Origin: Rhizophagus irregularis
Lineage: Eukaryota > Glomeromycota > Glomeromycetes > Glomerales > Glomeraceae
Assembly: GCF_026210795.1 (NCBI RefSeq)
Contig: NC_089435.1
Coordinates: 3,286,001 to 3,350,000 of the forward strand
Reading direction: 5' to 3'
DNA length: 64,000 nt
Part shown: piece after piece, positions 40,022 through 53,661 of the stretch
Layout of the letters: every line of letters begins with the position of its first letter
How positions within the stretch are numbered: position 1 is the first letter of the stretch
Translations under genes and position numbers: made by a program
Notes under the pieces: model-generated
The model's database searches: none
Seen by the model: only the letters and a program-made list of their open reading frames with translations
Told to the model about the DNA's origin: nothing

Positions 40022-40938
40022 ATGCAAGATAACAAAGATAAACGACCTTGTAAGAAATTAAAGGTGAACTTTACTTATAAAAAACCTACTGATGATGAGC
40101 TTCGCAATCTTATTGATAGTAGCCGATGTAAAAATACTGATTATTCAACTTCAAATTGGATACGAGCTTTGGAAAAATTTAGAACAGATGTTAATTATCA
40201 AGGATTGATTGAGGAAGTTGATACAAAAGAAGAATTAGAGGATCAGCTTTGTAGATTTGTTTATGCAATGAGAAAAAAAGATGGTTCTGAATATCATGTT
40301 TCTTCAGTTAATAGTTGCATGTTTGCAATAAATAGACATTTGAATAATAAGTCTGTCCTTTCAAAACCTATCAACATTATGGATAAAGATCAATATTACA
40401 AATTATGGCAGATTTTGAATGGTAAAGTTAAGAGTCTTGTGAGTCAAGGTCGTGGGGAGCGTAACGGTGCTGATGGATTTACTGAAGATGATCTTCTTCA
40501 GATTCTTGATCATCCAGCAATGTCTGGCAATGATCCTGCCAGTTTATTATATAGGATCTTTTTTTTTAATGCTATTTTTTTAGGGTTAAGGGGAGGAGAA
40601 CATTTCAATTTGCAGCTTCAAAATTTTATACGAAGAAAAGACAAATATGGTGGATTTGATGTTATCATTTACAAATCAAAAACTAATCAACGCGGTGCCA
40701 ATAATATTGAATCTCAAGGTGATAAGTTATACATTCCCGAAATACCTAGTATCATTGAAATGTATGAAAATTATTTTACCAAACGTCCAACCCAAGCTGA
40801 TCCACATTTTTATTTAAAGCCATGCAATATTAGTGAAGGTAAATATTAAAATTTTTTTTTTTTTTTGACAAATCTAATGTCAAAATTTTTATTATTTTTT
40901 ATTTCATATTATACAGTTGAATTTAATGGACCATGGTA
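40022..40938 (+). pseudogene. DUF3504/Crypton-like tyrosine recombinase, 5' part (split by the Polinton)
   Basis: Exon 1 is 40022-40838; a GT-AG intron (40839-40916) leads to exon 2, which is cut at 40938 by the Polinton. The N-terminal 150 residues are helical and typical of the SAM-like core-binding region. GLRGGEHFNL near residue 190 carries the first catalytic Arg of tyrosine recombinases. The reading frame resumes without loss after the element (52994): removing the element and one copy of ATGGTA gives codons CCA TGG TAT CAT. Total length would be 460 residues. Relatives include Crypton transposons and domesticated ZMYM/QRICH1 type genes. In the present state a full protein cannot be made from the plain transcript. 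Confidence 0.8.
40933..40938. repeat. Target-site duplication ATGGTA (left copy)
   Basis: Six bases identical to 52988-52993 immediately outside the inverted repeats. Six bases is the duplication length known for Polinton integrases. Confidence 0.9.
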
Positions 40939-41376
40939 AGTAGTATGAAAACCCCAATTCTAGCTCACCCCCACCATATAATCTAAAATACTACCACTTT
41001 ATATAATCTAATTACCACCATCATATAACTTAATTACCATCATATAATCCACCTACCACTTTTACTATAATTTAACTACCACTTTATATAATCTAATTAC
41101 CACCATCATATAATTTTAATTACCACCATATAATCCACCTACCACTTTTCATATAATCTAGTTACCATCATATAGTTTTATTACCACCATACAATTCTAT
41201 TACCACCACACAATCTGAAAAAATTAACCGAACAAGAAATAGGATTTCAAAGCCAACGGAGCCAAAAAAGGTAAGGAATATTAACCCATCCAGGAAACCA
41301 GCCATGGAGTCAATAGAGCGGAATAGCAAGGCAAGCAATTACCCTTATACCGAGAAAAAATGTAATTGAATAAAAG
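40939..41376. repeat. Polinton left terminal inverted repeat
   Basis: 438 bp, inverse of 52549-52987. The outer 270 bp are a series of iterated words (TTACCACCATATAAT, CTACCACTTTATATAAT and variants, about a dozen). The inner 160 bp are unique and end with the promoter-like motif at 41353-41376. Confidence 0.92.
41353..41376 (+). promoter_or_regulatory. Conserved promoter-like motif, copy 1
   Basis: A 24-bp word (AGAAAAA followed by ATGTAATTGAATAAAAG) at the inner edge of the left inverted repeat, 39 nt before the start codon at 41416. It is identical at 42025-42048 and 52549-52572 (minus), and 21 of 24 bases match at 50965-50988 (minus). Confidence 0.65.
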
Positions 41377-41415
41377 GTAGGTACCAAGTAACTATACAGA
41401 TAAATAGTACATAAC

Positions 41416-41862
41416 ATGGTATATACCGCAGAAAAGTTAGCAACAATCTTTGGCTGCACAGTCTCTGATCTTATGGCTATCAATAGAGAGATTCTAAAAA
41501 GCCACCAAACCCCGTACGCAGTATCAGTAATCCCCGAACTTGTGGGCCATATCCTGGAATACATTCCAAGTAGAAATTTCGGGACACATCTTCTAGAAGT
41601 CAGCCCAATCTGGAGAGCCGAAGCTGAACGAATACTCTGGAAGCGGCATAAAGAAGCCGAGGAGGCATACGACAAAGCAGTAGAAAAGAAGGAAAAAGCA
41701 AATGATGCTCTTGGTCGATCAGAGGAGGAGGGTAATAGAAATCGTGACCTCCGTGAACTTGAATGGGAGGCATATCAAAAGGCTTGTAAAGAGAGAACAA
41801 ATGCTGCAGTAGAGCATATTATGGTAAAAGAAGCTATTCGCCGTTGTAGCTTACAACTATAA
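41416..41862 (+). CDS. F-box-like protein of the Polinton (left end)
   Basis: 148 residues. Residues 37-76 look like an F-box: VIPELVGHILEYIP, then FGTHLLEVSPIWRAEAERILWKRH, matching the pattern of Leu-Pro, a hydrophobic helix and W...A.RILW seen in the host F-box genes. The second half is a charged helix, probably a coiled coil (EAYDKAVEKKEKANDALG). An acidic stretch (SDSDDNPDDSDGEE, 41899-41949) follows in the same frame after three stops and may be a lost tail. Role inferred: recruitment of host Skp1/cullin ligase by the element. Transcription probably starts from the motif at 41353. Confidence 0.6.
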   Translation: MVYTAEKLATIFGCTVSDLMAINREILKSHQTPYAVSVIPELVGHILEYIPSRNFGTHLLEVSPIWRAEAERILWKRHKEAEEAYDKAVEKKEKANDALGRSEEEGNRNRDLRELEWEAYQKACKERTNAAVEHIMVKEAIRRCSLQL

Positions 41863-42024
41863 GTTACTTAAGGATAGAGTATACATCAGGACAAGGATGT
41901 GCTCAGTGACTCGGATGACAATCCCGATGACTCAGATGGTGAGGAATAGTTTAGGAAGACAGTACTAATCTGTCTCCCTCTTTTTTTACCCTCATAGGGT
42001 AGGCGAACAATTAATTTTATTTTC

Positions 42025-42048
42025 AGAAAAAATGTAATTGAATAAAAG
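42025..42048 (+). promoter_or_regulatory. Conserved promoter-like motif, copy 2 (polymerase gene)
   Basis: Identical 24 bp to the motif in both inverted repeats, 22 nt before the polymerase start codon. It is followed by TATAAAAAGTTTACAAGATG, which closely parallels TATAAAAGACTTACAAGATG before the gene at 52524. Confidence 0.7.
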
Positions 42049-42070
42049 AGGAGTATAAAAAGTTTACAAG

Positions 42071-45000
42071 ATGTCAACACATCAAGCAAGAAGTGCCCAA
42101 CACAGACAAGTCACCCGATCAGTTCTAGCTGAACTCAAGCAGGTACCTGTCAAGTCCATCCCATATCCCCGCTCAAATGCAAAATTGCAGGAATATGAGG
42201 ATGAGATCCGCCAAATCCGTGAAGCACAAGCGGCGGTAACCAATGAAGAGATAACCCGCATGATGCAAATTGATCCAGACCCACATTATGAGGTAGTCTT
42301 TGAACGTCGTGATCAGGTACGTATAGGAAAGGAGTTAACAGACTCAAACTTTACGGCTGATATTGCTATAGGAACACCTGGAGAGCATGACTATGCTTCA
42401 TTTCTTACAGCACACAGTCAAACAATCCAGAATATTCTTCAGGATGAAAGAAATCGATTGGGATCAATAAAAGTAAGAATTGGAATATTTGCCACAATAA
42501 GACGTTTAGATTCTTACCTTGAGGGATTATTCGGAGATGGTAACTTTAGTGAAGATGATGGAGTAGAGTATATCTACAGATATAACATACCATTTAAAAC
42601 TCGCAATATGCCAATCCTACCATCAACAGATATTAATGGTACATTTAACTTTGCATTAGCAAGAATCATGCAGAAAGTAGAAGACTATGTAAATTACGGA
42701 TCAGGTTGGGAATTCTATCGTGTAGAAAAAATATTTATAGAAATCTCGCAATTTCAACCACCCACAGGAGCAGGACATATACCACTCCCAAAAGATCTTG
42801 CCACGAAAAAGGGAGTAGTAAATCCAGCTAATGATGATGACAAATGCTTCCAGTGGGCAATCCTAGCAGCATTACATCCAGTAGAAAAGAACGCAGAAAG
42901 AATTTCCAAGTATAAGGAGTATGTAAATGAGTTAAACTTTGAAGGTATCGAATTTCCAGTACAAGCTGATGAGGTAATTCTAAGAAGATTTGAGCGACAG
43001 AACCCAACTATTGCCCTCTGCATTTGTGAATGGCGTGACCACCGCCTATGCCCAATATATGTTACCGATAGGGATGATGCAGAGGGCCGTAAAATAATAG
43101 ATTTAGTACTTATCAGTAACGGGGAAAAGCAGCACTATTGCTGGATTAAGAATATGAGCCGTTTAGTAAATAAACGTACAAAAGATGGACATGCAACATT
43201 TGTCTGCCGATGGTGTATCTCCCACTTCACACATCAACAAGAAATCCATAACAAACATGTAGCAATATGTCGAGGATTAAAGAAAACCCCACAAGCAGAC
43301 CGAATGCCATCAGTAAAGAAAGGAAATGATATATATGAATTCAAGAACTGGAAACGCCGCATGCAAGTCCCATATTACTTTGTTGCAGACTTTGAAGCCC
43401 TAGTAATGGACATACCACCCACAGATGAAGACAAAGATAAGAAAACCAAGAAAGTACAAGAGCAAATCCCCTGCTCATACTCGTATATTAAGGTAAGATA
43501 TGATGGTGTAAGTGAATCACAGAAGATATTTACAGGAGAAAATGCAGCACAAAAATTTGTAATCGAAATGCTAAATGAGGCTGAAGCAATCCGTAATGAA
43601 TTCAGAAACCCAATGGAAATGATGCCGTTAACAACCCAAGAGCAAGCAAGTTATGATAATGCAATAAACTGCTGGATATGTCGTAACCCCTTAAATGGAA
43701 ATAAAGTAAGAGACCACTGCCATATTACAGGAAGGTATCGAGGTGCAGCACATAGAGGATGTAATCTTGACTTATCCATAAAACCTCGTGAAATGCATAT
43801 CCCAGTAATCTTTCACAATTTATCAGGATATGATGGACACATAATTATGCAAGGAATTGGTGCAATGGAATGTGAGGATGATATTGATCCTATCCCTTAT
43901 AACATGGAAAAGTATATGGCATTCAAGTTAGGTTCCCTCCGATTTATAGACAGCTTACAATTCATGAAATCAAGTCTCGACAAATTAGCATCCAATCTAG
44001 GTGCAGAAAAATGTAGAGCACAAGAATGTAGTAATCCACAACACTTATGGCGAATTGATGCAGGTAGATGCTTTGCACATCCCGAAAACTTTAAGATAAC
44101 ACGAAGTCAAATACCACCTGAATTACTCGAGATTTATCTTAAAAAAGGTGTCTACCCGTATGAATACATGGATGACTGGAAAAAGTTTGAGAAAACTAGT
44201 TTACCACCTAAAGGAGCATTTTATAGCAAACTTAATGAAACCCACATTAGTGATAAAGAATATGAATATGCACAGTATGTATGGGAAAAAGCAGGATGTA
44301 AAACAATGCAAGATTATCATGTCATTTATCTCAAAACTGACGTCCTCCTACTAGCCGATATATTTCAGAATTTCCGAGAAATGGCCTTGAAAAAATATGG
44401 GTTAGATCCTCTCTGGTATTATTCAACACCAGGCTTCGCATGGGATGCACTATTCTTAATGACAGGGCAAAGATTGGATCTTATAACTGACCAGGACATG
44501 TACATGATGGTAGAACAAGGATTACGTGGTGGAATCTCTATGGTAAGTAAACGATATGCTCGTGCAAATAATCCAGGTATGGGAGAAGGTAAATGGACCG
44601 CAGATAAGCCCAAGTCATCTATTCTATACTTAGACGCAAATAACCTATATGGATGGGCCATGTTGCAATACTTACCTACAGGTAACTTCCACTGGATAAA
44701 GGAGGAAAACGAGTTATCTAACATTCAAAGGCAAATAGAAAGTAATGAAATACCAGACGATTCTTCTGAAGGATATATCCTTAAAGTTAAACTGGAGTAC
44801 CCTCAAGCCCTCCATTCACAACACACAGATTACCCCCTTGCACCAGAACGAATGAAGGTTAAGAAGGAATGGCTTAGTAAAAAGCAGCAGGAAATAATAG
44901 CACGCTCAGGACAACGATACACACCCACAGATAAGCTCATCCCTAACCTATTTGATAAGGATGAATATGTAGTTCATTATAGAAATCTCCAGTATTATGT

Positions 45001-45967
45001 TAGCCAGGGCTTAGTAATCAAGAAGGTCTATGAAGCTATAAAATTCGAGCAGGCTCCATGGATGAAACCATATATAGAATTTAACACCGCCGAACGTGCT
45101 AAGGCTAAGAATGATTTTGAGAAGGACTTCTATAAACTCATGAATAATAGTGTATTTGGTAAAACTATGGAAAATCTCAGGAAACGTGTACGTGTCTCAG
45201 TAGTACAACCCCAAACCCATCCCAAGAAATATAAAAAGCTTACCTCAGATCCTGCATTCAAGGGTCGTAAAATATTCTCAGAAAATCTTGTTGCAATCCA
45301 CCGACGAAAAGTGGAGGTAATGCTTAACCGTCCAACATATGTGGGTATGAGTGTGCTTGACCTCTCGAAGCTCTGTATGTATCAATTCTACTATGATACT
45401 CTTAAAGTACGATATGGTGAAAAAATCCAGTTATGTTATACAGACACAGACTCACTTCTTGTACAAATCCAAACTGAGGATATTAATGCAGACCTCATAG
45501 ATATGGCAGACCAATTTGACTTCAGTGATTATCCTAAAGATCATCCTGTACGAAAAGCATTAGGTGATAAGACTGACATAAATATGAAAATCCCAGGGAA
45601 ATTTAAGGATGAATGTAATGGAGCAGTTATAGCAGAATTTATTGGCCTCCGTCCCAAAATGTATTCCATTCTCAAGGTAGGGGATGAGACCACCAATCCA
45701 AAACATGGTATCCGTAAGGCTAAAGGTGTCCCCTCAAAGGTAGTTAAAAAAGAGTTCCACCATGAGCGGTATAATAAGGCACTCTTTGATCCTAAACATA
45801 ATGATACAGTCACCTTTAGAGCAATCCGATCTGATAGACATGCCATAAATGTTATAGAAATGTCGAAGGTAGGATTATCCCCTATGGATGATAAAAAATG
45901 GATTGCACAAGATAATATCACAATGTATGCACATGGAGATTATAGGATACCACAACTTGAAAATTAA
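42071..45967 (+). CDS. polB: Protein-primed type DNA polymerase B of a Polinton
   Basis: 1,298 residues, uninterrupted. The exonuclease domain has motif I FVADFEA (Asp 440, Glu 442), motif II HNLSGYDGH (Asp 588) and motif III TDVLLLAD (Asp 757). A zinc/HNH-like insertion, CWIC (534-537) then RDHCHITGRYRGAAHRGCN, lies between exonuclease motifs I and II, as in Maverick polymerases. Polymerase motif A is LDANNLYGW (Asp 855), motif B KLMNNSVFGK (about 1020-1030) and motif C YTDTDS (1123-1128). All catalytic residues are present. It would replicate the element, presumably from a protein primer at the ends. Its stop codon overlaps that of the convergent integrase gene by 4 bp. Confidence 0.95.
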   Translation: MSTHQARSAQHRQVTRSVLAELKQVPVKSIPYPRSNAKLQEYEDEIRQIREAQAAVTNEEITRMMQIDPDPHYEVVFERRDQVRIGKELTDSNFTADIAIGTPGEHDYASFLTAHSQTIQNILQDERNRLGSIKVRIGIFATIRRLDSYLEGLFGDGNFSEDDGVEYIYRYNIPFKTRNMPILPSTDINGTFNFALARIMQKVEDYVNYGSGWEFYRVEKIFIEISQFQPPTGAGHIPLPKDLATKKGVVNPANDDDKCFQWAILAALHPVEKNAERISKYKEYVNELNFEGIEFPVQADEVILRRFERQNPTIALCICEWRDHRLCPIYVTDRDDAEGRKIIDLVLISNGEKQHYCWIKNMSRLVNKRTKDGHATFVCRWCISHFTHQQEIHNKHVAICRGLKKTPQADRMPSVKKGNDIYEFKNWKRRMQVPYYFVADFEALVMDIPPTDEDKDKKTKKVQEQIPCSYSYIKVRYDGVSESQKIFTGENAAQKFVIEMLNEAEAIRNEFRNPMEMMPLTTQEQASYDNAINCWICRNPLNGNKVRDHCHITGRYRGAAHRGCNLDLSIKPREMHIPVIFHNLSGYDGHIIMQGIGAMECEDDIDPIPYNMEKYMAFKLGSLRFIDSLQFMKSSLDKLASNLGAEKCRAQECSNPQHLWRIDAGRCFAHPENFKITRSQIPPELLEIYLKKGVYPYEYMDDWKKFEKTSLPPKGAFYSKLNETHISDKEYEYAQYVWEKAGCKTMQDYHVIYLKTDVLLLADIFQNFREMALKKYGLDPLWYYSTPGFAWDALFLMTGQRLDLITDQDMYMMVEQGLRGGISMVSKRYARANNPGMGEGKWTADKPKSSILYLDANNLYGWAMLQYLPTGNFHWIKEENELSNIQRQIESNEIPDDSSEGYILKVKLEYPQALHSQHTDYPLAPERMKVKKEWLSKKQQEIIARSGQRYTPTDKLIPNLFDKDEYVVHYRNLQYYVSQGLVIKKVYEAIKFEQAPWMKPYIEFNTAERAKAKNDFEKDFYKLMNNSVFGKTMENLRKRVRVSVVQPQTHPKKYKKLTSDPAFKGRKIFSENLVAIHRRKVEVMLNRPTYVGMSVLDLSKLCMYQFYYDTLKVRYGEKIQLCYTDTDSLLVQIQTEDINADLIDMADQFDFSDYPKDHPVRKALGDKTDINMKIPGKFKDECNGAVIAEFIGLRPKMYSILKVGDETTNPKHGIRKAKGVPSKVVKKEFHHERYNKALFDPKHNDTVTFRAIRSDRHAINVIEMSKVGLSPMDDKKWIAQDNITMYAHGDYRIPQLEN

Positions 45968-47022
45968 TATAATATATAAGTAGGAGGCAGCATAGTATCA
46001 GATGGCACAACTAATAATTCTTCTCGAGTAAATATTTTTTTAGGTCCATCAGATAACCTATATATAACCGGCTGCCCATCAACAACTGTGGAAGATTCAA
46101 TTGTATAAACTTTAGTAGACCATATTGGATCAGTTGCACGTCTCCTACCTTGGTAATCTGAGTTATCAAGTAAGTATCTCACAAGAGAACCAGCTGGTAA
46201 ACGTATTTCTTCTGCACCTACAGGTCTATCCTTCCGAATTTTTGAAGGTAGTGCATACACTTGATCTTTCTGGATTGCCTCAACTGGCAACATACCTAGT
46301 AGACGAGTATTAGAATTATTTAGCTCATTCACAATATCAGAAAGGTTCTTAACCCAGGCAGTATTCACACCTTCTGTAAGGAGTTCCTTTGCATCCTGTA
46401 TTTTGAAAAGTCTCTCTGCTAAAGTTCGATTATACCGTTCAACAATAGCCTGACTCTTATGAGTAGTACCCACCCGAATACGCACACCTTTTTCATCCAT
46501 TAATCGGATAACTTCATCCTTAAATTCTGATCCCCCATCTACTTGTAAAACTCTTGGCCAAATAAGCGGGCAGTCTGCTTTACCATAAATCTTTTTAAAT
46601 GCCTTAGCAACACGTGCAGAGCTGCGATCTTCTAGAGGTACTGAAGCTTTATATCGGCTAGCAACATCTACAATATTCAGACAGTATTTATACAGCTTTC
46701 TATCTACAGTATCATAGGGCATATATAAGATATCTGCTTGATGATACATATTTGGTCGAGTAATCTTATTAAAAGAAACCTGTGGAACATACTTGGGTAT
46801 AGGTAAGTGTATTTGCCATATAGCCTGTTTATGCAACCACTCTGTAATATCAGATATATTAAAATCATGGCCTTCAGCTTGCACTTTAGCCCAAAGTTTT
46901 TCAGGAGTACGATAATATCCACATGGATGGTAATAGATTTGTTGAAGGATATAATTTTGTTCGATTTGTTTATTAAATGTAGGGTCTATAAAAATCTGTG
47001 GAACTGGCAATGGAAGATACAT
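45964..47022 (-). CDS. Polinton-type integrase (rve superfamily)
   Basis: 352 residues from the ATG at 47022. The N-terminal region (IYYHPCGYYRTPEKLW, then EWLHKQAIWQIH) is typical of Polinton integrases. The catalytic core has Asp 97 (HQADILYMP), Asp 162 (QVDGGSEF) and Glu 195 (VERYNRTL). The C-terminal part (LRYLLDNSDYQGRRRATDPIW to YRLSDGPKKIFTREELL) looks like the chromo/SH3-like tail of this family. It inserts element DNA with 6-bp target duplications, as observed here. The stop overlaps the polymerase stop by 4 bp, and the start lies inside the divergent Gag frame (13-bp overlap). The frame is intact, so it may be active. Confidence 0.93.
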   Translation of the reverse strand: MYLPLPVPQIFIDPTFNKQIEQNYILQQIYYHPCGYYRTPEKLWAKVQAEGHDFNISDITEWLHKQAIWQIHLPIPKYVPQVSFNKITRPNMYHQADILYMPYDTVDRKLYKYCLNIVDVASRYKASVPLEDRSSARVAKAFKKIYGKADCPLIWPRVLQVDGGSEFKDEVIRLMDEKGVRIRVGTTHKSQAIVERYNRTLAERLFKIQDAKELLTEGVNTAWVKNLSDIVNELNNSNTRLLGMLPVEAIQKDQVYALPSKIRKDRPVGAEEIRLPAGSLVRYLLDNSDYQGRRRATDPIWSTKVYTIESSTVVDGQPVIYRLSDGPKKIFTREELLVVPSDTMLPPTYILY

Positions 47023-48212
47023 CGTTAAAGACACAGATTACAAAGCTTGCACATACATTGCAATCACAAGAGCAATATATAAAATACCTGTATGGTGTAA
47101 TCGAGGGTCATGAATCTGAGATAGAAGAACTTAGGCAAAAAAATGCTGAGTTGCGTGCAAAGCTTAAGAAAGCATTAGAAACGGCATCACTAAAGGAGGA
47201 AGGGCTTCAAGCATTAGAACGTCAGCTGATTGAAGTTGATACTCTAAATATTCAACTCAAAGATCGAATAAAAGAACTTGCTAATAGACAACGGAAAAAC
47301 ATGGCAGCAATTCCTCCTGACCCTATTACAGAAATCTTAAATAATCGGACAACTATAGCAAATAGTGTAGCTGGTATTCACCTTGATCGTACAACTATAG
47401 CAGCACACCCTCATATAAATCATTTATTTAACACTGCAAATGATAGTCTTGATGCCATTATCCGATATGCTAATGAGTTGCGAAATATTATAGAAGATCA
47501 AGATAATATGGAGGATAGACTTGAAGGTTTGTTAGATGATGCACATAACCGTGAAGAATATCTTAGACGAGAACTTAATAATACACGTGCTACTATACTA
47601 AGAACAAGACGTACCTATGAGGATGCATATGCAAATGAAGTGCGTCATCGCCAACATTGGGAAGGCCTTGCACAAAATACTCAGATCCAATTGGCTAACA
47701 TCCAGGCTCAATTTGCTAACAGTCAAATCCAACTAGCTAATGTCCAGAGAGAACGTGATGAGAGTAGAAGAAATGCTCATAGATTATTACAGCGCTATAA
47801 TACTGAAACAGAGCGAAGTAGAAGGCGGGCTAATGGTATCATTCAGCAAGCTCGAGCATGGAGAGGGCAATTTTTAAACTGTCGCAATCATGGTCAAAAT
47901 TTGCAAAATCAGGTCAATAATTTGAATCAACAGATTCTAGCATTACAAAATAACCCTCCGGTAATACAACAACCTATAATGGCAGGATATGCACCTAAAA
48001 AATTTAGAGGAGCATCTGGTGAAGATCCAGAACTTTGGCTTCAAGAATTCAGGCAATGGTGTGAGTCTGCTGGACTTGATCCTGCTGCTAATGCTAGGAC
48101 TCGTGTTAGGATTCATGGGATCTTTGAAACTTTACTTGAAGATGATGCTAGAGATTGGTATGAAAGCGCATATCAAAGGAAAAAATTGGGAATGTGTAAA
48201 TCTTCTGGATAA
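47010..48212 (+). CDS. Gag-like protein, N-terminal frame (coiled coil plus Gag core start)
   Basis: 400 codons from the ATG at 47010. Residues 1-315 are almost all charged helix with heptads (EELRQKNAELRAKLKKAL; repeated QLANIQAQFANSQIQLAN), so a long coiled coil. From about residue 326 a retrotransposon Gag core begins: KKFRGASGEDPELWLQEFRQ, WCESAGLDP, then LEDDARDWYES. The sensible continuation, HIKGKNWECVNLLDN, is in the next frame and is reached by a +1 shift near 48165-48170. A TATAAAAA word lies 23 nt before the start, inside the integrase gene. The plus- and minus-strand start codons overlap head to head. Confidence 0.75.
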   Translation: MEDTSLKTQITKLAHTLQSQEQYIKYLYGVIEGHESEIEELRQKNAELRAKLKKALETASLKEEGLQALERQLIEVDTLNIQLKDRIKELANRQRKNMAAIPPDPITEILNNRTTIANSVAGIHLDRTTIAAHPHINHLFNTANDSLDAIIRYANELRNIIEDQDNMEDRLEGLLDDAHNREEYLRRELNNTRATILRTRRTYEDAYANEVRHRQHWEGLAQNTQIQLANIQAQFANSQIQLANVQRERDESRRNAHRLLQRYNTETERSRRRANGIIQQARAWRGQFLNCRNHGQNLQNQVNNLNQQILALQNNPPVIQQPIMAGYAPKKFRGASGEDPELWLQEFRQWCESAGLDPAANARTRVRIHGIFETLLEDDARDWYESAYQRKKLGMCKSSG

Positions 48213-49341
48213 TACTGGTGTGGCCACTCTTGCTGCTTTTAATGCTTTGAATAATGCCGCTATACAGGCTGTAGCGGCGAATCAATTTCGTGGAGGGGCT
48301 GGTGTATTACATGGACAAGCAGCTGCAGATAATACTATTACTGGTGCTAATTTTATACCTGATCATACTGTATGGGATGAAGATTGGTCAATAGTCGAGG
48401 GTCGTCCTACTGATATAGCTGTTAATAATCCTAATGCTAATAATGGAGGTACAATTGTGGCTCCTGGAATACGTATTGGACAATTAATATATCGTTTTAA
48501 GCATTACTTCCCTACTATAACATCTGAAAAGTCTAAGCTTGCATTTAATGCTATTGTTCAGGGTAGTGATACTGTAAGCCGATTCTATTCTAAATTACGA
48601 AGAATGGTTAGACTTGCATATCCAATTCTTCCAGAGGTAAATCAGAATGAATTAGTACGGCAACAGTTCTTAAATGGTCTTTCCAGTGAAAATAAGTTGG
48701 ATGCGCGACGTATTGGTTTAGAAAATTCAGTTGCATCTATTCTGAATAAATTGGAAGAAGTTGAGAAATACAGGACAGATATGCCACCTACTCCTATAGT
48801 TACATACCAGGGTCCAACTTTAGCGGATATTGAGAATCTTATAAATTCTAAAATTCCTATGACTACGGCTAAATCATCTGCAGTACCAGTACCATCTTCT
48901 AGTCCATTTTCAAGTCCTCAAAATGATACATCATTTCAGAGATTACTTGCTTTAGCATATAAATTAGGTCTTCCAAGAGATATCGATATAAGTAAAGTAA
49001 CCCTTAGTGATCTTGAAATATTTATTGATACAGAACTTAATAAAAATTTACCATCTGACCATATTTACCGTGGTAATCAGGTATTTGGTATAAGTTCAGG
49101 TACACGCAAACCAAAGAAATCAAAGAAATGCTCAAGTTGTGGAAAATCTGGTCATACTAAGAGTTCCTGTCCAAAATCTAAGAAGGGAAAGAGGAAAACA
49201 AATTATGCACATGACTCCTCTGATTCCTCTAACTCTTCTGACGCCTCTGACTCCTCTGACTCCTCTGATAGTGATTCAGACTCTGGACATGCCTGCTATG
49301 GATTAAAAAAAAAAGCCTACAGAAAGGAAACGTGTAGATAA
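48169..49341 (+). CDS. Gag-like protein, C-terminal frame with CCHC zinc knuckle
   Basis: Frame +1 relative to the previous segment. It continues the Gag core (HIKGKNWECVNLLDN; SRFYSKLRRMVRLAYP; LVRQQFLNGLSSENKLDAR), the helical capsid-like region of Ty3/gypsy-type Gag. A Pro/Ser linker follows, then a CCHC knuckle at 49129-49170 (CSSCGKSGHTKSSC) with basic flanks, and a Ser-Asp repeat (49206-49290). The frame ends at 49341 just after a run of ten A (49305-49314). With one base fewer there, reading continues into the protease. A true Gag would form shells and bind nucleic acid; for this element that is inference. Confidence 0.75.
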   Translation, partial: HIKGKNWECVNLLDNTGVATLAAFNALNNAAIQAVAANQFRGGAGVLHGQAAADNTITGANFIPDHTVWDEDWSIVEGRPTDIAVNNPNANNGGTIVAPGIRIGQLIYRFKHYFPTITSEKSKLAFNAIVQGSDTVSRFYSKLRRMVRLAYPILPEVNQNELVRQQFLNGLSSENKLDARRIGLENSVASILNKLEEVEKYRTDMPPTPIVTYQGPTLADIENLINSKIPMTTAKSSAVPVPSSSPFSSPQNDTSFQRLLALAYKLGLPRDIDISKVTLSDLEIFIDTELNKNLPSDHIYRGNQVFGISSGTRKPKKSKKCSSCGKSGHTKSSCPKSKKGKRKTNYAHDSSDSSNSSDASDSSDSSDSDSDSGHACYGLKKKAYRKETCR

Positions 49342-50215
49342 AAAGCCTACTGATAAGAAAAAATCACAACTTGAAAGGCAGCGTATTATCTTTGAGGTTT
49401 TTATACAACTCTTAAAGCTTCTGGTTCAATCCTTCGTTAATGCTGTACCAAAAGAGACTGTTATATCTGCTTACAATGCTCTGAATGCTGAATTCATTAA
49501 TTATAAAGAACCAGTACTCAGTCAGCTTAAAGGAGAACCCTCGATAAAAACACGTGAAAAAGTTTGGGATAATGTTAAGGACCTTTTCACATCTATCCTT
49601 CATCCTATGATTTCGGTTGTAACTAATAGTATGGCTGCAAATTTAATCCGTAAAAATGATGATGTTATATGTAATAATGACTTATGGTCTTCTATAGCGG
49701 GTATTGGAATTGTTAACCGCAAGTCTGCTAGTGATGTAGTCACTATTAAGACCAAAGTAGTCGCACCTGAGAGTGAAAAATCTTTAGTTATTCCTACGAC
49801 AATTTTTGATACTGGTTCTGATAGTTCTCTGATATCTAACAATATTGTAAAGCGCCTAAATCTTGACGTTGATAGAAGTAATGCTCCTGATCTTAGTGGT
49901 GTTGCAACAAAATCTGATACTATTGGGACAGTATATGGTCTTGGTATTCTTGTATATGATGGGGAGAACTCTAAAAAAATTGAAGATGACTTCATGGTTG
50001 TTAAGAGTGATAAGGACTTTTTATTGCTAGGTGTACCTTGGATTGATCGTGCTAATGTCATTCTAGATTTCCAAAATCGGCAACTGACCATCCCTCTATC
50101 ATCACGTAAAAAAATTACCATTCCAATTTCTCTACATAAACGGAAAACTAACGTGACTTCCTTGCAGATGGATACTATCGACTTAAAAAAAATTCACACT
50201 CTCGAGGAAGATTAA
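49313..50215 (+). CDS. Retropepsin-like aspartic protease (third frame of Gag-Pro)
   Basis: A frame open from the A10 run at 49305-49314 to 50215, with no start codon of its own before a late Met. Basic KKPTERKRVDKKPTDKKK continues the Gag tail; a helical region follows (to about 49600). The protease core has the active-site motif FDTGSDSSLIS (about 49807-49838) and the C-terminal LLLGVPWIDRANVILDF hydrophobic-Gly motif. It is a single-domain retropepsin that would dimerise and process Gag. No reverse transcriptase or RNase H follows, unlike a Ty3/gypsy element. It is most likely made as a Gag-Pro fusion by frameshifting, unless the A10 run is a mutation or read error. Confidence 0.75.
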   Translation, partial: KPTERKRVDKKPTDKKKSQLERQRIIFEVFIQLLKLLVQSFVNAVPKETVISAYNALNAEFINYKEPVLSQLKGEPSIKTREKVWDNVKDLFTSILHPMISVVTNSMAANLIRKNDDVICNNDLWSSIAGIGIVNRKSASDVVTIKTKVVAPESEKSLVIPTTIFDTGSDSSLISNNIVKRLNLDVDRSNAPDLSGVATKSDTIGTVYGLGILVYDGENSKKIEDDFMVVKSDKDFLLLGVPWIDRANVILDFQNRQLTIPLSSRKKITIPISLHKRKTNVTSLQMDTIDLKKIHTLEED

Positions 50216-50334
50216 CCTGTCATCTATGTGGAGCAAGTTTTGACTTTCCCTCTAAGTTAAAGCGTCATCTTGCTAGGAAAAATCCATGTGTTTCCCAAAC
50301 TTCTGCGGCAATGATGGGCAGTGGCGGGCAGTGA
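50212..50334 (+). pseudogene. C2H2/C2HC-type zinc-finger fragment after the protease
   Basis: In the frame next to the protease frame, overlapping its stop, the sequence reads TCHLCGASFDFPSKLKRHLA and then RKNPC, a finger of the CxxC...HxxxxxC kind. It stops at 50332. The protease frame could join it by a one-base change at the A-run near 50187. It is either the C-terminal domain of the polyprotein or a fragment of a captured gene. Confidence 0.45.
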
Positions 50335-50405
50335 CAGGGCAGTGCCCAAATTTTTTCGGCAGTGACGGGCAGTAACAGGGCAGTGCCCAAATTTTTTCGG
50401 TAGTG
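50323..50405. repeat. Two-copy direct repeat with GGGCAGTGCCC palindrome
   Basis: Two copies of about 41 bp (starting near 50325 and 50366) with the words GGGCAGT, ACAGGGCAGTGCCC and AAATTTTTTCGG. The GGGCA-G-TGCCC palindrome could form a short hairpin followed by a T run in the space between the convergent Gag-Pro and F-box genes, so a 3'-end signal is possible. Confidence 0.5.
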
Positions 50406-50422
50406 ATTAGCCTTTACAAATA

Positions 50423-50935
50423 TTACATTTGCCATGTTACTCTGATTTCTAGGTCTTTACGGGTTTCTATGAGTTTTTCAATGGCATTTCTATTTTTAAA
50501 ATATCGACTATATCTGATATCTAGCTTTTGAAGGTTTGGTAATATATGCAGGATTTCACTTAGCAAATCTCTAACGTCACCTTTTCCACCATAGTATTGA
50601 TAATCTATTATGCTAAGTTCCTGGATATTGGGACAAGCTTGTAGCATTTTTACAATACAAATGGGCCATAATTTTACTCCATCCATATTAAGCTTTCTGA
50701 TATATTTTCCACATACTGTTCCTGGTTTTGTGAGATGTTTGTACATTTGGAACTCCTTAATATTATAGAGGTTATAAAGGTCTGTTTCACCCCATAGGAG
50801 AGAGTTTGCTACTACAGCCCATTTTCGACACACTAATGCATAATTGCAAAGATAATGCCAACGGGAGTAAGTACCTTCATATGAAGTTTTGAATATCTTT
50901 TCTAAAAGTTCGAAAGGTAAGCTATTGTTTGTCAT
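50423..50935 (-). CDS. F-box/LRR-like protein of the Polinton (internal)
   Basis: 170 residues. The N-terminal F-box reads SLPFELLEKIFKTSYEG, then LCNYALVCRKWAVVANSLLWG. LRR-like segments follow (VKMLQACPNIQELSII, EILHILPNLQKLDIRYS). It is much shorter than the host F-box genes at 13505 and 16374 and is not a recent copy of them. A variant of the element's promoter motif (50965-50988) lies 29 nt before the start codon. Role inferred: recruiting a host or element protein to SCF ubiquitin ligase. Confidence 0.75.
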   Translation of the reverse strand: MTNNSLPFELLEKIFKTSYEGTYSRWHYLCNYALVCRKWAVVANSLLWGETDLYNLYNIKEFQMYKHLTKPGTVCGKYIRKLNMDGVKLWPICIVKMLQACPNIQELSIIDYQYYGGKGDVRDLLSEILHILPNLQKLDIRYSRYFKNRNAIEKLIETRKDLEIRVTWQM

Positions 50936-50964
50936 GGTATCTCATATGAGATATTGATGAAGAA

Positions 50965-50988
50965 GTTTTATTTAATTAGATTTTTTCT
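50965..50988 (-). promoter_or_regulatory. Conserved promoter-like motif, copy 3 (variant)
   Basis: On the minus strand 21 of 24 bases match the motif at 41353, 42025 and 52549. It lies in the 104-bp divergent space between the F-box gene (minus) and the TBP-like gene (plus). Confidence 0.5.
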
Positions 50989-51039
50989 TAGGATAAAATA
51001 ATTTGAACATTTCTTTTCTATCAATAGAAAAAACCAGAC

Positions 51040-51831
51040 ATGCTTACTTTTAGTGAACTTACTCCATCTCTTACTGTTACTGAATTTAAGATCAATGTTG
51101 AAGGGCTTGATTACACCGTGCTTGGTCATAAGCTTGAACCTACTAAGGATGTTATTGCCATTAATAGCAACTTTATTCATAAAGCTTTTGAGGGTTATGA
51201 ACAGTACTTGTCTAAACCAAAAGGTGAGAGGCGATGCAGACGAAGTACACCTGACAATCCATTAAATAGACGGCGACGTACAGGGGATGGTAGCACTTTT
51301 AATGCATGCATTGAGTTTGTTATCATCTTAGCTGATACTGTACATACTATTCGTTATTTTCCTAAATCTGGTAGTATACAAGTTTTCGGGTCTTTTGATC
51401 CTGTTGCTATCTTCTTACGTTACCTTTCTGAATGTTCCCTACCTGAATTTTCTTCTGTAGAACTTGTGGGTGGAAATAAGGCTCTCCTGCGCAATTATAA
51501 ATTTGTGATTAATATTGGGGGTGATAAGTTTATTAATCTTTCTACCTTAGCATATGCTTTAGAATCTATAGATGGTATTCGTGAGATTCTTCCCTTTCCG
51601 ATAAAGTATATTAAGAATGATGCAGGTGATATTCATTCTAAAATTGCTATAATCTTTACTTCAAAGATTCGGGTACATATCTGGCCTAAATCTGGTAAGG
51701 TTAATATATTTGGCACTAAGACTGAATTGGATGCTGATATGGTTTATAAGTTCTTACAGAAGTTGTTTTCTAATCCGAATGATTTTGGGGATTTTATTTG
51801 TGATGCACCTATTCCAGATTGTGAGAGGTAA
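51040..51831 (+). CDS. Putative TATA-binding-protein-like factor of the Polinton
   Basis: 263 residues, no signal or membrane segment. Two halves share a pattern: FNACIEFVIILAD, then HTIRYFPKSGSIQVFG and a helix (about 88-135); and SKIAIIFTS, then VHIWPKSGKVNIFGTKTE and a helix DADMVYKFLQKLF (about 200-250). In TBP each half has a strand with F/W..SGK(V/M)..TG.K followed by a long helix; large DNA virus TBP-like proteins show FxN(Q/A)I near the strand before it. A basic loop (ERRCRRSTPDNPLNRRRR) precedes the first half. I infer a divergent TBP fold. Alternative: an unrelated two-repeat protein. The gene is divergent from the F-box gene. Confidence 0.45.
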   Translation: MLTFSELTPSLTVTEFKINVEGLDYTVLGHKLEPTKDVIAINSNFIHKAFEGYEQYLSKPKGERRCRRSTPDNPLNRRRRTGDGSTFNACIEFVIILADTVHTIRYFPKSGSIQVFGSFDPVAIFLRYLSECSLPEFSSVELVGGNKALLRNYKFVINIGGDKFINLSTLAYALESIDGIREILPFPIKYIKNDAGDIHSKIAIIFTSKIRVHIWPKSGKVNIFGTKTELDADMVYKFLQKLFSNPNDFGDFICDAPIPDCER

Positions 51832-51852
51832 AAAAAATGGTTTCACTGAGAA

Positions 51853-52524
51853 CTAAAAACCCTCTATTTGTAAAATCCAGCAATCGCATTCCTGACTTCT
51901 TGTTGGCATAAGACATTCGTCACATAGAGTTATAGCCAACTCATTTTTTAGTCTATCCAGCTGACTCTCGGTGGTCGGTGCAAGATTCTGATAGTATTCA
52001 TTGAATTCATTCTGCTCTACTTCATCTATGTCTTCATCTGTGTCTTCGTCCATATCTTCATCTCCTTTAATATGGTAGATGCTGAATTCATTTCTATATT
52101 CATCATTAGGATTCGTGAATATTCTTTGTATATTGTAATCTATAATGTTGAATGTTGTAGGTTTCTTTTTTGATAATATTTCTACTAAGTCTAATAATGC
52201 ATATGCTAATTCTTTATCCTCTGAGAAGTTCTTAATGATATCTGAAAATCTTTCATATATTGCCATCTCATCTGGTAGAATAGAATATCTTATTCGTGAT
52301 AAAAGTGATGGATGTATCCATATATCATCACCTTCTAACATCTCATCAAATATTTCTACTAGCTCTTCTAATCCAGATACTAACATACTTTCTTTGCTAA
52401 ATTCGGAATCTAAAGCTTTTAAATATGCTATATCTAAATACCACATTATTTCCTTTACCCATTCTTCTATGTTGAGTTCAAACTGGCCTAGTATACGTCT
52501 TAGTAATGGTCTGTATTGTGACAT
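51853..52524 (-). CDS. Acidic protein of unknown function (Polinton right end)
   Basis: 223 residues. The N-terminal two thirds are helical and acidic (LVSGLEELVEIFDEMLEGDD; FSEDKELAYALLDLVEIL). A strongly acidic linker (EDMDEDTDEDIDEVEQNE) follows, and a short Cys cluster CDECLMPTRSQECDC ends the protein, perhaps a small zinc site. No family recognised. The start is preceded by TATAAAAGACTTACAAG and the promoter motif inside the right inverted repeat. It ends about 20 bp from the TBP-like gene, which converges on it. Its place at the very edge suggests an early or regulatory role. Confidence 0.6.
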   Translation of the reverse strand: MSQYRPLLRRILGQFELNIEEWVKEIMWYLDIAYLKALDSEFSKESMLVSGLEELVEIFDEMLEGDDIWIHPSLLSRIRYSILPDEMAIYERFSDIIKNFSEDKELAYALLDLVEILSKKKPTTFNIIDYNIQRIFTNPNDEYRNEFSIYHIKGDEDMDEDTDEDIDEVEQNEFNEYYQNLAPTTESQLDRLKNELAITLCDECLMPTRSQECDCWILQIEGF

Positions 52525-52548
52525 CTTGTAAGTCTTTTATATGTGAAT

Positions 52549-52572
52549 CTTTTATTCAATTACATTTTTTCT
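52549..52572 (-). promoter_or_regulatory. Conserved promoter-like motif, copy 4 (right repeat)
   Basis: Identical, on the minus strand, to the motif at 41353-41376. It points inward toward the gene starting at 52524 (24 nt away). Confidence 0.65.
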
Positions 52573-52987
52573 CGGTATAAGGGAAATTGCTTGCCTTGCT
52601 ATTCCGCTCTATTGACTCCATGGCTGGTTTCCTGGATGGGTTAATATTTCCTTACCTTTTTTGGCTCCGTTGGCTTTGAAATCCTATTTCTTGTTCGGTT
52701 AATTTTTTCAGATTGTGTGGTGGTAATAGAATTGTATGGTGGTAATAAAACTATATGATGGTAACTAGATTATATGAAAAGTGGTAGGTGGATTATATGG
52801 TGGTAATTAAAATTATATGATGGTGGTAATTAGATTATATAAAGTGGTAGTTAAATTATAGTAAAAGTGGTAGGTGGATTATATGATGGTAATTAAGTTA
52901 TATGATGGTGGTAATTAGATTATATAAAGTGGTAGTATTTTAGATTATATGGTGGGGGTGAGCTAGAATTGGGGTTTTCATACTACT
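52549..52987. repeat. Polinton right terminal inverted repeat
   Basis: 439 bp, inverse of 40939-41376. By eye only a one-base indel and one substitution separate the two copies. Confidence 0.92.
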
Positions 52988-53661
52988 ATGGTATCATAAG
53001 CAACATGTGTCTGAAAAAGAAATTAAATCCTTTATGAAAAAAATTGTTACCTTAACCGGAATTAACGTGGATGATCGCAAAATTAGTAACCATTCAGGTC
53101 GGAAAATGCTAGTACAAATATTAAAGCGATGAGGATTTTCAAATTCTGAATGTATGGCAAGTACACGACATAAGTCTGAGCAAGGGCTTGCTAGATATGA
53201 GCGTCCAGAAACTGAAATTCAACGAAATAATGCTTTTAACCTTGTTGAAGCATTTGGTTTTAATAAAAATAATATTCGATCAGGTAAAAATTTGAAATTT
53301 TTAATCATTAATAAATGACCTGCATTCTAATTTTCTTCTATAGAAGAATCAATGGAACAATCAACTTTATCAACAGACAATTTCGTTGTTGCAAAATCAT
53401 TGCTTAATGGTAATATTCTAAAATTTTATTCTATTTTTTGATAATCAATTTAACAAAATTGAACTTTTTCTAGATAATCGTGAAGTTATTAATTCGGCAA
53501 ACAGTAATATTAAAGTTACAAGAAGGCCATTAAAAGATTTAAATGAAATTCAAGAAAATAAAAGTCAAAATTTGGAAGAATTAGTTTCGAAATTAACAGC
53601 TGATAAAGTTTTTATCAATTCTGTTATTATTTTCAATAATAATCCTAATAGCCATAATTAA
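52988..53661 (+). pseudogene. DUF3504/Crypton-like tyrosine recombinase, 3' part
   Basis: Begins with the second ATGGTA copy and resumes the codon broken at 40938. Exon 2 continues to 53283, followed by exons 53344-53409 and 53474-53661 with in-frame GT-AG introns. It contains NHSGRKMLVQIL (the HxxR pair), TRHKSEQGLARYERP (the nucleophile Tyr) and a Lys/Asn-rich tail. A single TGA stop at 53130-53132, between HxxR and Tyr, breaks the otherwise open frame. So the gene was either already dying before the Polinton landed or has picked up a stop since. Confidence 0.8.

What the first reader, a model, noticed from the sequence alone, without database searches (positions are those of the whole stretch)
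47010..50334. Gag plus retropepsin module where a Polinton should carry capsid, ATPase and cysteine protease
Known Polintons encode double-jelly-roll major and minor capsids, a HerA/FtsK ATPase and an Ulp1-like protease. None is recognisable here. The same place holds a coiled-coil Gag core, a CCHC knuckle and a DTGS aspartic protease, with no reverse transcriptase, no RNase H and no LTRs. The Gag start overlaps the integrase start by 13 bp, so the gene is woven into the element. This suggests a DNA element that swapped its virion module for a retroelement Gag, which could build Gag-type shells around a DNA genome. It could be a previously undescribed class.
Basis: partly seen in the sequence, partly recalled or inferred. 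Interest (0 to 1): 0.9.

Follow-up and report, generated by a model that had tools for sequence, protein, structure and literature searches.

The report
DNA transposons carrying a retrovirus-like capsid
In a soil fungus that lives with plant roots, families of virus-like DNA transposons carry a retrovirus-type shell protein and protease where the usual DNA-virus shell genes are expected, which raises the testable possibility that a DNA genome travels in a retrovirus-type particle.

Summary
The window holds a complete 12,049-bp Maverick/Polinton-type element (40939-52987: near-identical inverted repeats, 6-bp target duplication ATGGTA). Gag and retropepsin lie inside it, head-to-head with the integrase, and are not a nested retrotransposon: 37 of 38 close integrase places have Gag beside them, and all 16 elements I read, with integrases down to 28% identity to the window's, carry Gag sequence and the protease. 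A model of a public homologue shows a retroviral CA fold and a retropepsin fold. No jelly-roll capsid was recognised; the longest unassigned ORF is TBP-like. Sister elements join Gag-Pro to an A32-type packaging ATPase, with two polymerase types. Homologues occur in other Glomeromycota. Published work left the missing capsid of R. irregularis Polintons unexplained. I propose that Gag-Pro is the virion module of these DNA elements. Anatomy and conservation are shown; particle formation and DNA packaging are inferred. In this copy the Gag-Pro region runs over three reading frames; another copy has one open frame.

The parts
40939..52987 (.). the whole element, 12,049 bp
   Evidence: bounded by inverted repeats and a 6-bp duplication; a 97.8% identical copy at C29
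40933..40938 (.). target-site duplication ATGGTA, left
52988..52993 (.). target-site duplication ATGGTA, right
40939..41376 (.). left terminal inverted repeat
   Evidence: against the right one 437 matches, 1 mismatch, 1 gap
52549..52987 (.). right terminal inverted repeat
41416..41862 (+). 148-aa ORF of unknown function
   Evidence: no Pfam or PHROG match; 93% identical in C29, 29% (E 6e-9) to an ORF beside the right repeat of the C1 element; not folded
42071..45967 (+). 1,298-aa family B DNA polymerase, Polinton type by motifs
   Evidence: motifs by eye (recalled): YLKTD, DANNLYGW, NNSVFGK, YTDTDS; no Pfam polymerase match, no PDB match; 33% identical (E 1.4e-32) to the L042 ORF, which matches PHROG DNA polymerase at E 0.0042; endonuclease VII-like insert aa 531-566
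45964..47022 (-). rve integrase, 352 aa
   Evidence: PF00665 E 8.1e-9; 116 matches in the genome
47010..48212 (+). Gag: coiled coil and start of CA (frame 0)
   Evidence: one open frame with the next two parts in the C29 copy
47989..49341 (+). Gag: CA core, CCHC knuckle, acidic serine-rich tail (frame 1; Gag-coding from about 48175)
   Evidence: fold of a close homologue
49607..50215 (+). retropepsin with DTGS (frame 2)
50423..50935 (-). F-box-like ORF, 170 aa
   Evidence: PF12937 E 1.5e-6; also in the C29 copy
51040..51831 (+). TBP-like viral protein, 263 aa
   Evidence: model pLDDT 88.8; best BFVD match B263R homologue of Abalone asfa-like virus, E 2.3e-17, TM 0.75; PDB TBPs E 5.5e-7
51853..52524 (-). 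223-aa ORF of unknown function with a Cys-rich end
   Evidence: no PHROG match, Pfam nothing over cut-off; 96% identical in C29; not folded

Best explanation
This is one copy of a class of self-synthesising, integrase-using DNA elements in a glomeromycete fungus whose virion module is a retroelement-type Gag-Pro. Proposed cycle: the element is copied as linear DNA by its own family B polymerase with the inverted repeats as ends; Gag (coiled coil, CA, and a CCHC or lysine-rich tail) assembles a shell; the aspartic protease matures it; in the families that have it, the A32-type ATPase drives the DNA in, while the window's family, in which no ATPase was found, would load DNA by co-assembly through the Gag tail or borrow an ATPase from a sister element; the rve integrase inserts the DNA with a 6-bp duplication. 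SHOWN: complete element with integration hallmarks; Gag-Pro as an integral, conserved gene; CA and retropepsin folds by prediction; co-occurrence with packaging-type ATPases in sister families; no recognisable jelly-roll capsid. INFERRED: that Gag forms particles, that these hold DNA, that the protease is active, and how packaging works.
For: Element bounds and an independent full copy with its own 6-bp duplication TAATAT and one open 1,075-aa Gag-Pro frame. Gag beside 37 of 38 close integrase places, all 37 head-to-head (two of the 37 rest on pieces of 63 and 88 residues). 16 of 16 elements read have Gag sequence and protease. CA and retropepsin folds, Pfam on the family, Ty3 and DDI1 proteases by profile. 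Pox_A32 ATPase in L036 (E 7.6e-11), L037 (3e-8), L043 (1.3e-10), L046 (9.7e-6), all near Gag-Pro. 51 of 68 chromodomain integrases have the ATPase at the ~3-kb spacing that holds Gag-Pro in L043. gag of L035/L037: dN/dS 0.12 (69 synonymous, 33 nonsynonymous). An independent published search found no MCP gene in five R. irregularis strains (PMC10640383 section 9).
Against: No particle, packaged DNA or protease activity is shown. No ATPase match in the window element, in C29 or in the 10 kb read of L042. The protease motif varies: DTG in the window, L042, L051-L053 and L054; DPG, DSG, DSA or DTC elsewhere, so some may be inactive. The CCHC knuckle is missing in L035, L037 and L043, where the first two have a lysine-rich stretch. 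The CA of L042 aligns poorly with the others. Other dN/dS values are less clear or rest on few changes: L035/L037 protease 0.60, integrase part 1.29, ATPase 0.21; window/C29 gag core 0.45, gag coil 0.59, integrase 0.53; C21/C23 gag 0.64. One of 38 close places (C27:1915288) had no Gag within 7 kb, and six Gag rows had no integrase within 7 kb.
Confidence: 0.6

Rival explanations
1. Gag-Pro is an integral, selected gene of these DNA elements but not a DNA capsid: it could be a nucleoprotein that guides element DNA or integrase in the nucleus, carry RNA (Arc-like), or block rival elements.
For: No particle data; the window family has no ATPase match; variable protease motif and nucleic-acid-binding tail; Arc2 and PEG10 have the same CA fold and carry RNA (recalled).
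Against: Gag, protease and an A32-type packaging ATPase occur together in L035, L036, L037, L043 and L046, which is the composition expected of a virion module.
Confidence: 0.28
2. A diverged jelly-roll capsid exists, in an unrecognised ORF or in trans from another element or virus, and Gag is an accessory.
For: MCPs diverge strongly; missing Polinton MCPs were found later in other species (PMC7805220 passage). The 148-aa and 223-aa ORFs were not folded. The PF04451 genome search was silent also in its control genomes.
Against: Longest unassigned window ORF is TBP-like; in the C1 element the unassigned ORFs are at most 203 aa apart from one of 386 aa without Pfam match; five strains searched by others with MCP models gave none (PMC10640383 section 9).
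Confidence: 0.08
3. Gag-Pro is a nested or captured retrotransposon fragment without a role in this one copy.
For: The window copy alone looks like that: three reading frames.
Against: Same place in 37 of 38 close places and Gag-Pro in 16 of 16 elements read; one open frame of 1,075 aa in C29; no bracketing repeats; 13-bp overlap with the integrase.
Confidence: 0.01

Closest known systems
Maverick/Polinton elements (polintoviruses)
   Same: Inverted repeats, 6-bp target duplication, rve integrase, family B polymerase with Polinton-type motifs; sister families have a Pox_A32-type ATPase.
   Different: No recognised double-jelly-roll MCP, minor capsid or Ulp1-like protease; Gag and retropepsin instead.
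Ty3/gypsy-type LTR retrotransposons and retroviruses
   Same: CA fold, CCHC knuckle, retropepsin in the same order.
   Different: No reverse transcriptase, RNase H or LTRs; integrase on the opposite strand; DNA polymerase present.
Asfarvirus-like polB genes and the 1.5-Mb asfarvirus-like region of R. irregularis (PMC5294986 passages; PMC10640383 sections 9 and 11)
   Same: The polymerase in L037/C23 is of the cellular/NCLDV B type (PF00136); the window's TBP-like protein is closest in fold to an asfarvirus B263R homologue.
   Different: Here these genes lie in small elements with integrase and Gag-Pro. That the dispersed published polB genes are these same elements is inferred, not tested.
Arc and PEG10 (domesticated Gag)
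   Different: Host genes (recalled); here Gag belongs to a mobile DNA element.
Chimeric giant elements such as Teratorn (abstract in listing; one passage)
   Same: Fusion of modules from different mobile-element worlds.
   Different: Teratorn joins a herpesvirus and piggyBac; no Gag capsid there as far as I know (recalled).

Membership tests
Maverick/Polinton | long terminal inverted repeats | tested here: met
   40939-41376 / 52549-52987, 437 matches, 1 mismatch, 1 gap
Maverick/Polinton | 6-bp target-site duplication | tested here: met
   ATGGTA in the window, TAATAT in C29 (flanks printed, read by eye); unclear for the C1 element; no ends found for C23
Maverick/Polinton | rve integrase | tested here: met
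   PF00665 E 8.1e-9
Maverick/Polinton | protein-primed family B polymerase | tested here: inconclusive
   motifs by eye and 33% identity to the L042 polymerase piece, but no Pfam polymerase match; met in the sister L043 (PF03175 E 4.5e-7)
Maverick/Polinton | double-jelly-roll major capsid protein | tested here: not met
   no Pfam capsid match; unassigned ORFs of 148 and 223 aa are too short (size recalled), the 263-aa ORF is TBP-like; the PF04451 search was uninformative
Maverick/Polinton | A32/FtsK-HerA packaging ATPase | tested here: not met
   four sister ATPases give no tblastn match (E <= 0.01) in the window element; met in L035, L036, L037, L043, L046
Maverick/Polinton | Ulp1-like cysteine protease | tested here: not met
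   no Pfam match in the 9 element ORFs scanned
Ty3-type LTR retroelement | Gag with CA fold and CCHC knuckle | tested here: met
Ty3-type LTR retroelement | retropepsin | tested here: met
Ty3-type LTR retroelement | reverse transcriptase and RNase H | tested here: not met
   no Pfam match in the ORFs scanned
Ty3-type LTR retroelement | LTRs | tested here: not met
   no bracketing direct repeats of 40 nt or more
Virus with a Gag capsid around DNA | particles that contain the element's DNA | not testable with these tools
   needs microscopy and nuclease-protected sequencing

The most novel reading that the evidence does not exclude
Glomeromycete fungi host a class of dsDNA virus-like elements whose capsid is a retroviral-type Gag, matured by a retropepsin and, in several families, filled by an A32-type dsDNA-packaging ATPase: a virion architecture that joins the retroviral and DNA-viral worlds and would explain Polintons and asfarvirus-like polymerases in a fungus without any known jelly-roll capsid.
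Probability: 0.55. Interest if true: 0.97.

Novelty: categorically new. Interest (0 to 1): 0.92.

Why it matters
Capsid type is a backbone of virus classification, and Polintons are held to be ancestors of many eukaryotic dsDNA viruses because of their jelly-roll capsids (recalled; also the abstract start of PMC7805220). PMC7805220 states that early Polintons of Glomus intraradices (R. irregularis) had no detectable MCP, that this fed the idea of capsid loss, and that none had yet been found there (passage). Here a Gag-Pro occupies that role in position and persists while polymerase and integrase types change. That makes an open question directly testable: can a retroviral capsid carry a DNA genome? 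The rating 'categorically new' rests on the combination (each part is known) and on finding no report of it in ten searches of open-licence PMC papers; Repbase and subscription journals were not searched. A stricter reader may call it a new variant of Polintons.

Tried and rejected
Nested retrotransposon: rejected. Jelly roll in the 263-aa ORF: rejected, TBP-like. The 148-aa and 223-aa ORFs were not folded. IMG/VR scans with polymerase, Gag core, the Gag alignment and the TBP-like alignment found no relative. The PF04451 genome search was empty, but nothing rang in its control genomes, so it shows nothing. The protease row 'pro w/L047' was read in a wrong frame and is discarded; redid it (4 synonymous, 1 nonsynonymous change). 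One search failed on an import and was rerun. In one search I used 107 of the 116 integrase rows (nine second or short pieces left out) and 58 of the 101 Gag rows (short further pieces left out). Zero of 12 places in the ~50% clade and 43 of 57 other places had no Gag hit there; I read five of the 12 (L042, L051-L054) and three of the 43 (L055-L057), and all eight carry Gag sequence and protease (in L057 only the Gag end with a CCHC fell in the stretch). The other 7 and 40 were not read. In one search, 13 of 68 integrases had no listed ATPase within 12 kb and 4 of the 55 with one had other spacings; only the first 68 rows and 81 rows were used. No inverted repeats were found for C23 in 30 kb, and the duplication of the C1 element is unclear, so those ends are not established. 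In one search four trypanosomatid mitoribosome chains rank among the matches (best E 2.6e-3); I did not work out which part of the model they match. Genome-wide searches with the L042 Gag, the L043 Gag and the polymerase did not complete.
Full report
WHAT IS THERE. The genome is that of Rhizophagus irregularis or a very close relative: a Gag of its elements matches an R. irregularis record at 99%, and the assembly has 146.7 Mb in 32 contigs. The window contains a complete element, 40939-52987 (12,049 bp), bounded by inverted repeats (437 matches, 1 mismatch, 1 gap) and a perfect 6-bp duplication ATGGTA. It carries, left to right, a 148-aa ORF, a 1,298-aa family B polymerase, an rve integrase on the minus strand, the Gag-Pro region, an F-box-like ORF, a TBP-like ORF and a 223-aa ORF. 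I call the polymerase family B by motifs seen by eye and by 33% identity to the L042 polymerase piece; Pfam found only an endonuclease VII-like insert in it. The near-identical repeats suggest a recent insertion.

CONSERVATION. The integrase gave 116 matches in the genome, the Gag core 101. Pairing them (107 and 58 rows used), 37 of 38 close-family integrase places (80-100% identity) have Gag within 7 kb, all 37 head-to-head; two of the 37 rest on short pieces. With this probe 14 of 57 more distant places had Gag (10 head-to-head, 4 in another layout) and 0 of 12 in a clade at about 50%; six Gag rows had no integrase within 7 kb. Reading the DNA showed that probe sensitivity explains misses: five of the 12 (L042, L051-L054) have Gag and a DTGS protease at the same spot, and three of the 43 (L055-L057) carry Gag sequence and protease. 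In all, 16 of 16 elements read carry both: window, C29, L042, L051-L054, L035, C23, C21, L037, L043, L046, L055, L056, L057. Seven of the 12 and 40 of the 43 were not read.

SISTER ELEMENTS. (a) C23, C21, L035, L037: Gag-Pro, integrase, Pox_A32-type ATPase (L036 E 7.6e-11, L037 3e-8; C21 and L035 by 99% and 82% identity to these). C23, C21 and L037 also show a family B polymerase (L037 piece PF00136 E 2.9e-24) and a coiled-coil ORF with a transmembrane-like stretch. That R. irregularis has polB genes of asfarvirus type is from PMC5294986 (passages) and PMC10640383 (sections 9 and 11); I built no tree, and the link to these elements is inferred. (b) L043/C1, with 116 integrase rows: about 15.1 kb between 95% inverted repeats, with a Pox_D5-like helicase interrupted by a stop (E 1.2e-5), DNA_pol_B_2 (E 4.5e-7), A32 ATPase (E 1.3e-10), protease (E 5.8e-8), and a chromodomain integrase; its Gag has no Pfam match of its own but aligns with the other Gag cores (26-31%, E down to 3e-26). 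Of the first 68 integrase rows 55 have the ATPase within 12 kb, 51 at the ~3-kb spacing that holds Gag-Pro. (c) L046: Gag, protease, ATPase (E 9.7e-6), integrase in another order. Gag-Pro thus stays while polymerase and integrase types change.

NO JELLY ROLL SEEN. The 263-aa ORF folds with confidence (pLDDT 88.8) as a TBP-like protein: best viral match the B263R homologue of Abalone asfa-like virus (E 2.3e-17, TM 0.75), best PDB matches TBPs. The 148-aa and 223-aa ORFs are too short for a double jelly roll (size recalled) and were not folded. In the C1 element the unassigned ORFs of 110 aa or more reach 203 aa, apart from one of 386 aa without Pfam match. The PF04451 search was empty but nothing rang in its controls. 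PMC10640383 (section 9) reports no MCP in five R. irregularis strains by tBLASTn and HMM searches; it also reports no A32 and no D5, whereas A32-like ATPases give 152 matches here.

MECHANISM. I think Gag-Pro replaces the jelly-roll capsid and its protease. Shown: integration hallmarks, conservation, predicted folds, co-occurrence with a packaging-type ATPase, and in the most informative pair purifying selection on gag (dN/dS 0.12, L035/L037; the same pair gives 0.60 for the protease, 0.21 for the ATPase and 1.29 for an integrase part with few changes; window/C29 pairs 0.07-0.59, C21/C23 gag 0.64). Inferred: assembly, DNA loading, protease action, spread between nuclei or hyphae. Weak points: no ATPase match in the window family, varied protease motifs and Gag tails, poorly aligning CA in L042.

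AGAINST WHAT IS KNOWN. PMC7805220 notes that the early Polintons of Glomus intraradices (R. irregularis) had no detectable MCP, that this led to the idea of capsid loss, and that none had yet been identified there (discussion passage). Two transposon papers on R. irregularis name Maverick elements without gene content in the passages shown (PMC8647823, PMC11075540). Ten library searches listed no paper whose title or abstract start reports a Gag in a Polinton; in seven papers I looked up the word Gag and found no such report. Other listed papers were not opened. Gag homologues in Entrophospora, Paraglomus, Diversispora, R. clarus and unnamed sources (35 proteins) suggest an old, widespread family; whether it sits in DNA elements there was not tested.

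VERDICT. Observation confirmed; interpretation supported for the anatomy, plausible for the function. I do not file the element as a Polinton in the viral sense, since the capsid feature was tested and not met. By its ends it behaves like a Maverick; if the inference holds, its shell works like a retrovirus's.

Noticed in passing
window 51040-51831: TBP-like protein closest in fold to an asfarvirus B263R homologue, with 66 homologues at E <= 0.001, many from environmental sources.
   Followed up: yes
L036/L038 (C23) versus L044/L045 (C21): The two elements are 97.5% identical over 9 kb (ATPase, integrase, Gag, protease, coiled-coil protein) but their polymerases are 46% identical: the polymerase was exchanged.
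   Followed up: partly
L055 versus L037 and L042: L055 Gag is 75% identical to L037 over residues 2-398 but resembles the L042 Gag (30%) further on: the CA domain seems to be swapped between families.
   Followed up: no
L036, L037, L038: The asfarvirus-like polB genes reported on many R. irregularis chromosomes (PMC10640383) may belong to these Gag-bearing elements rather than to giant-virus remnants.
   Followed up: partly
window 42071-45967, aa 531-566: Endonuclease VII-like insert within the polymerase (PHROG E 1.2e-6).
   Followed up: no
L036 7125-8780; L037 8052-8717; L046 8981-9553: Treble-clef and endonuclease-looking domain fused to, or beside, the integrase (DUF4379 E 0.02; rest by eye).
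   Followed up: no
window 40022-40849: ORF with DUF3504/QRICH1 matches (E 8e-7, 2e-5) ends 89 bp left of the element; Crypton-like by recall.
   Followed up: no
window 50317-50398: 41-bp tandem repeat just after Gag-Pro, with a C2H2-finger-like stretch before it in another frame.
   Followed up: no
window 50423-50935: F-box-like gene carried inside the element, also in the C29 copy.
   Followed up: no
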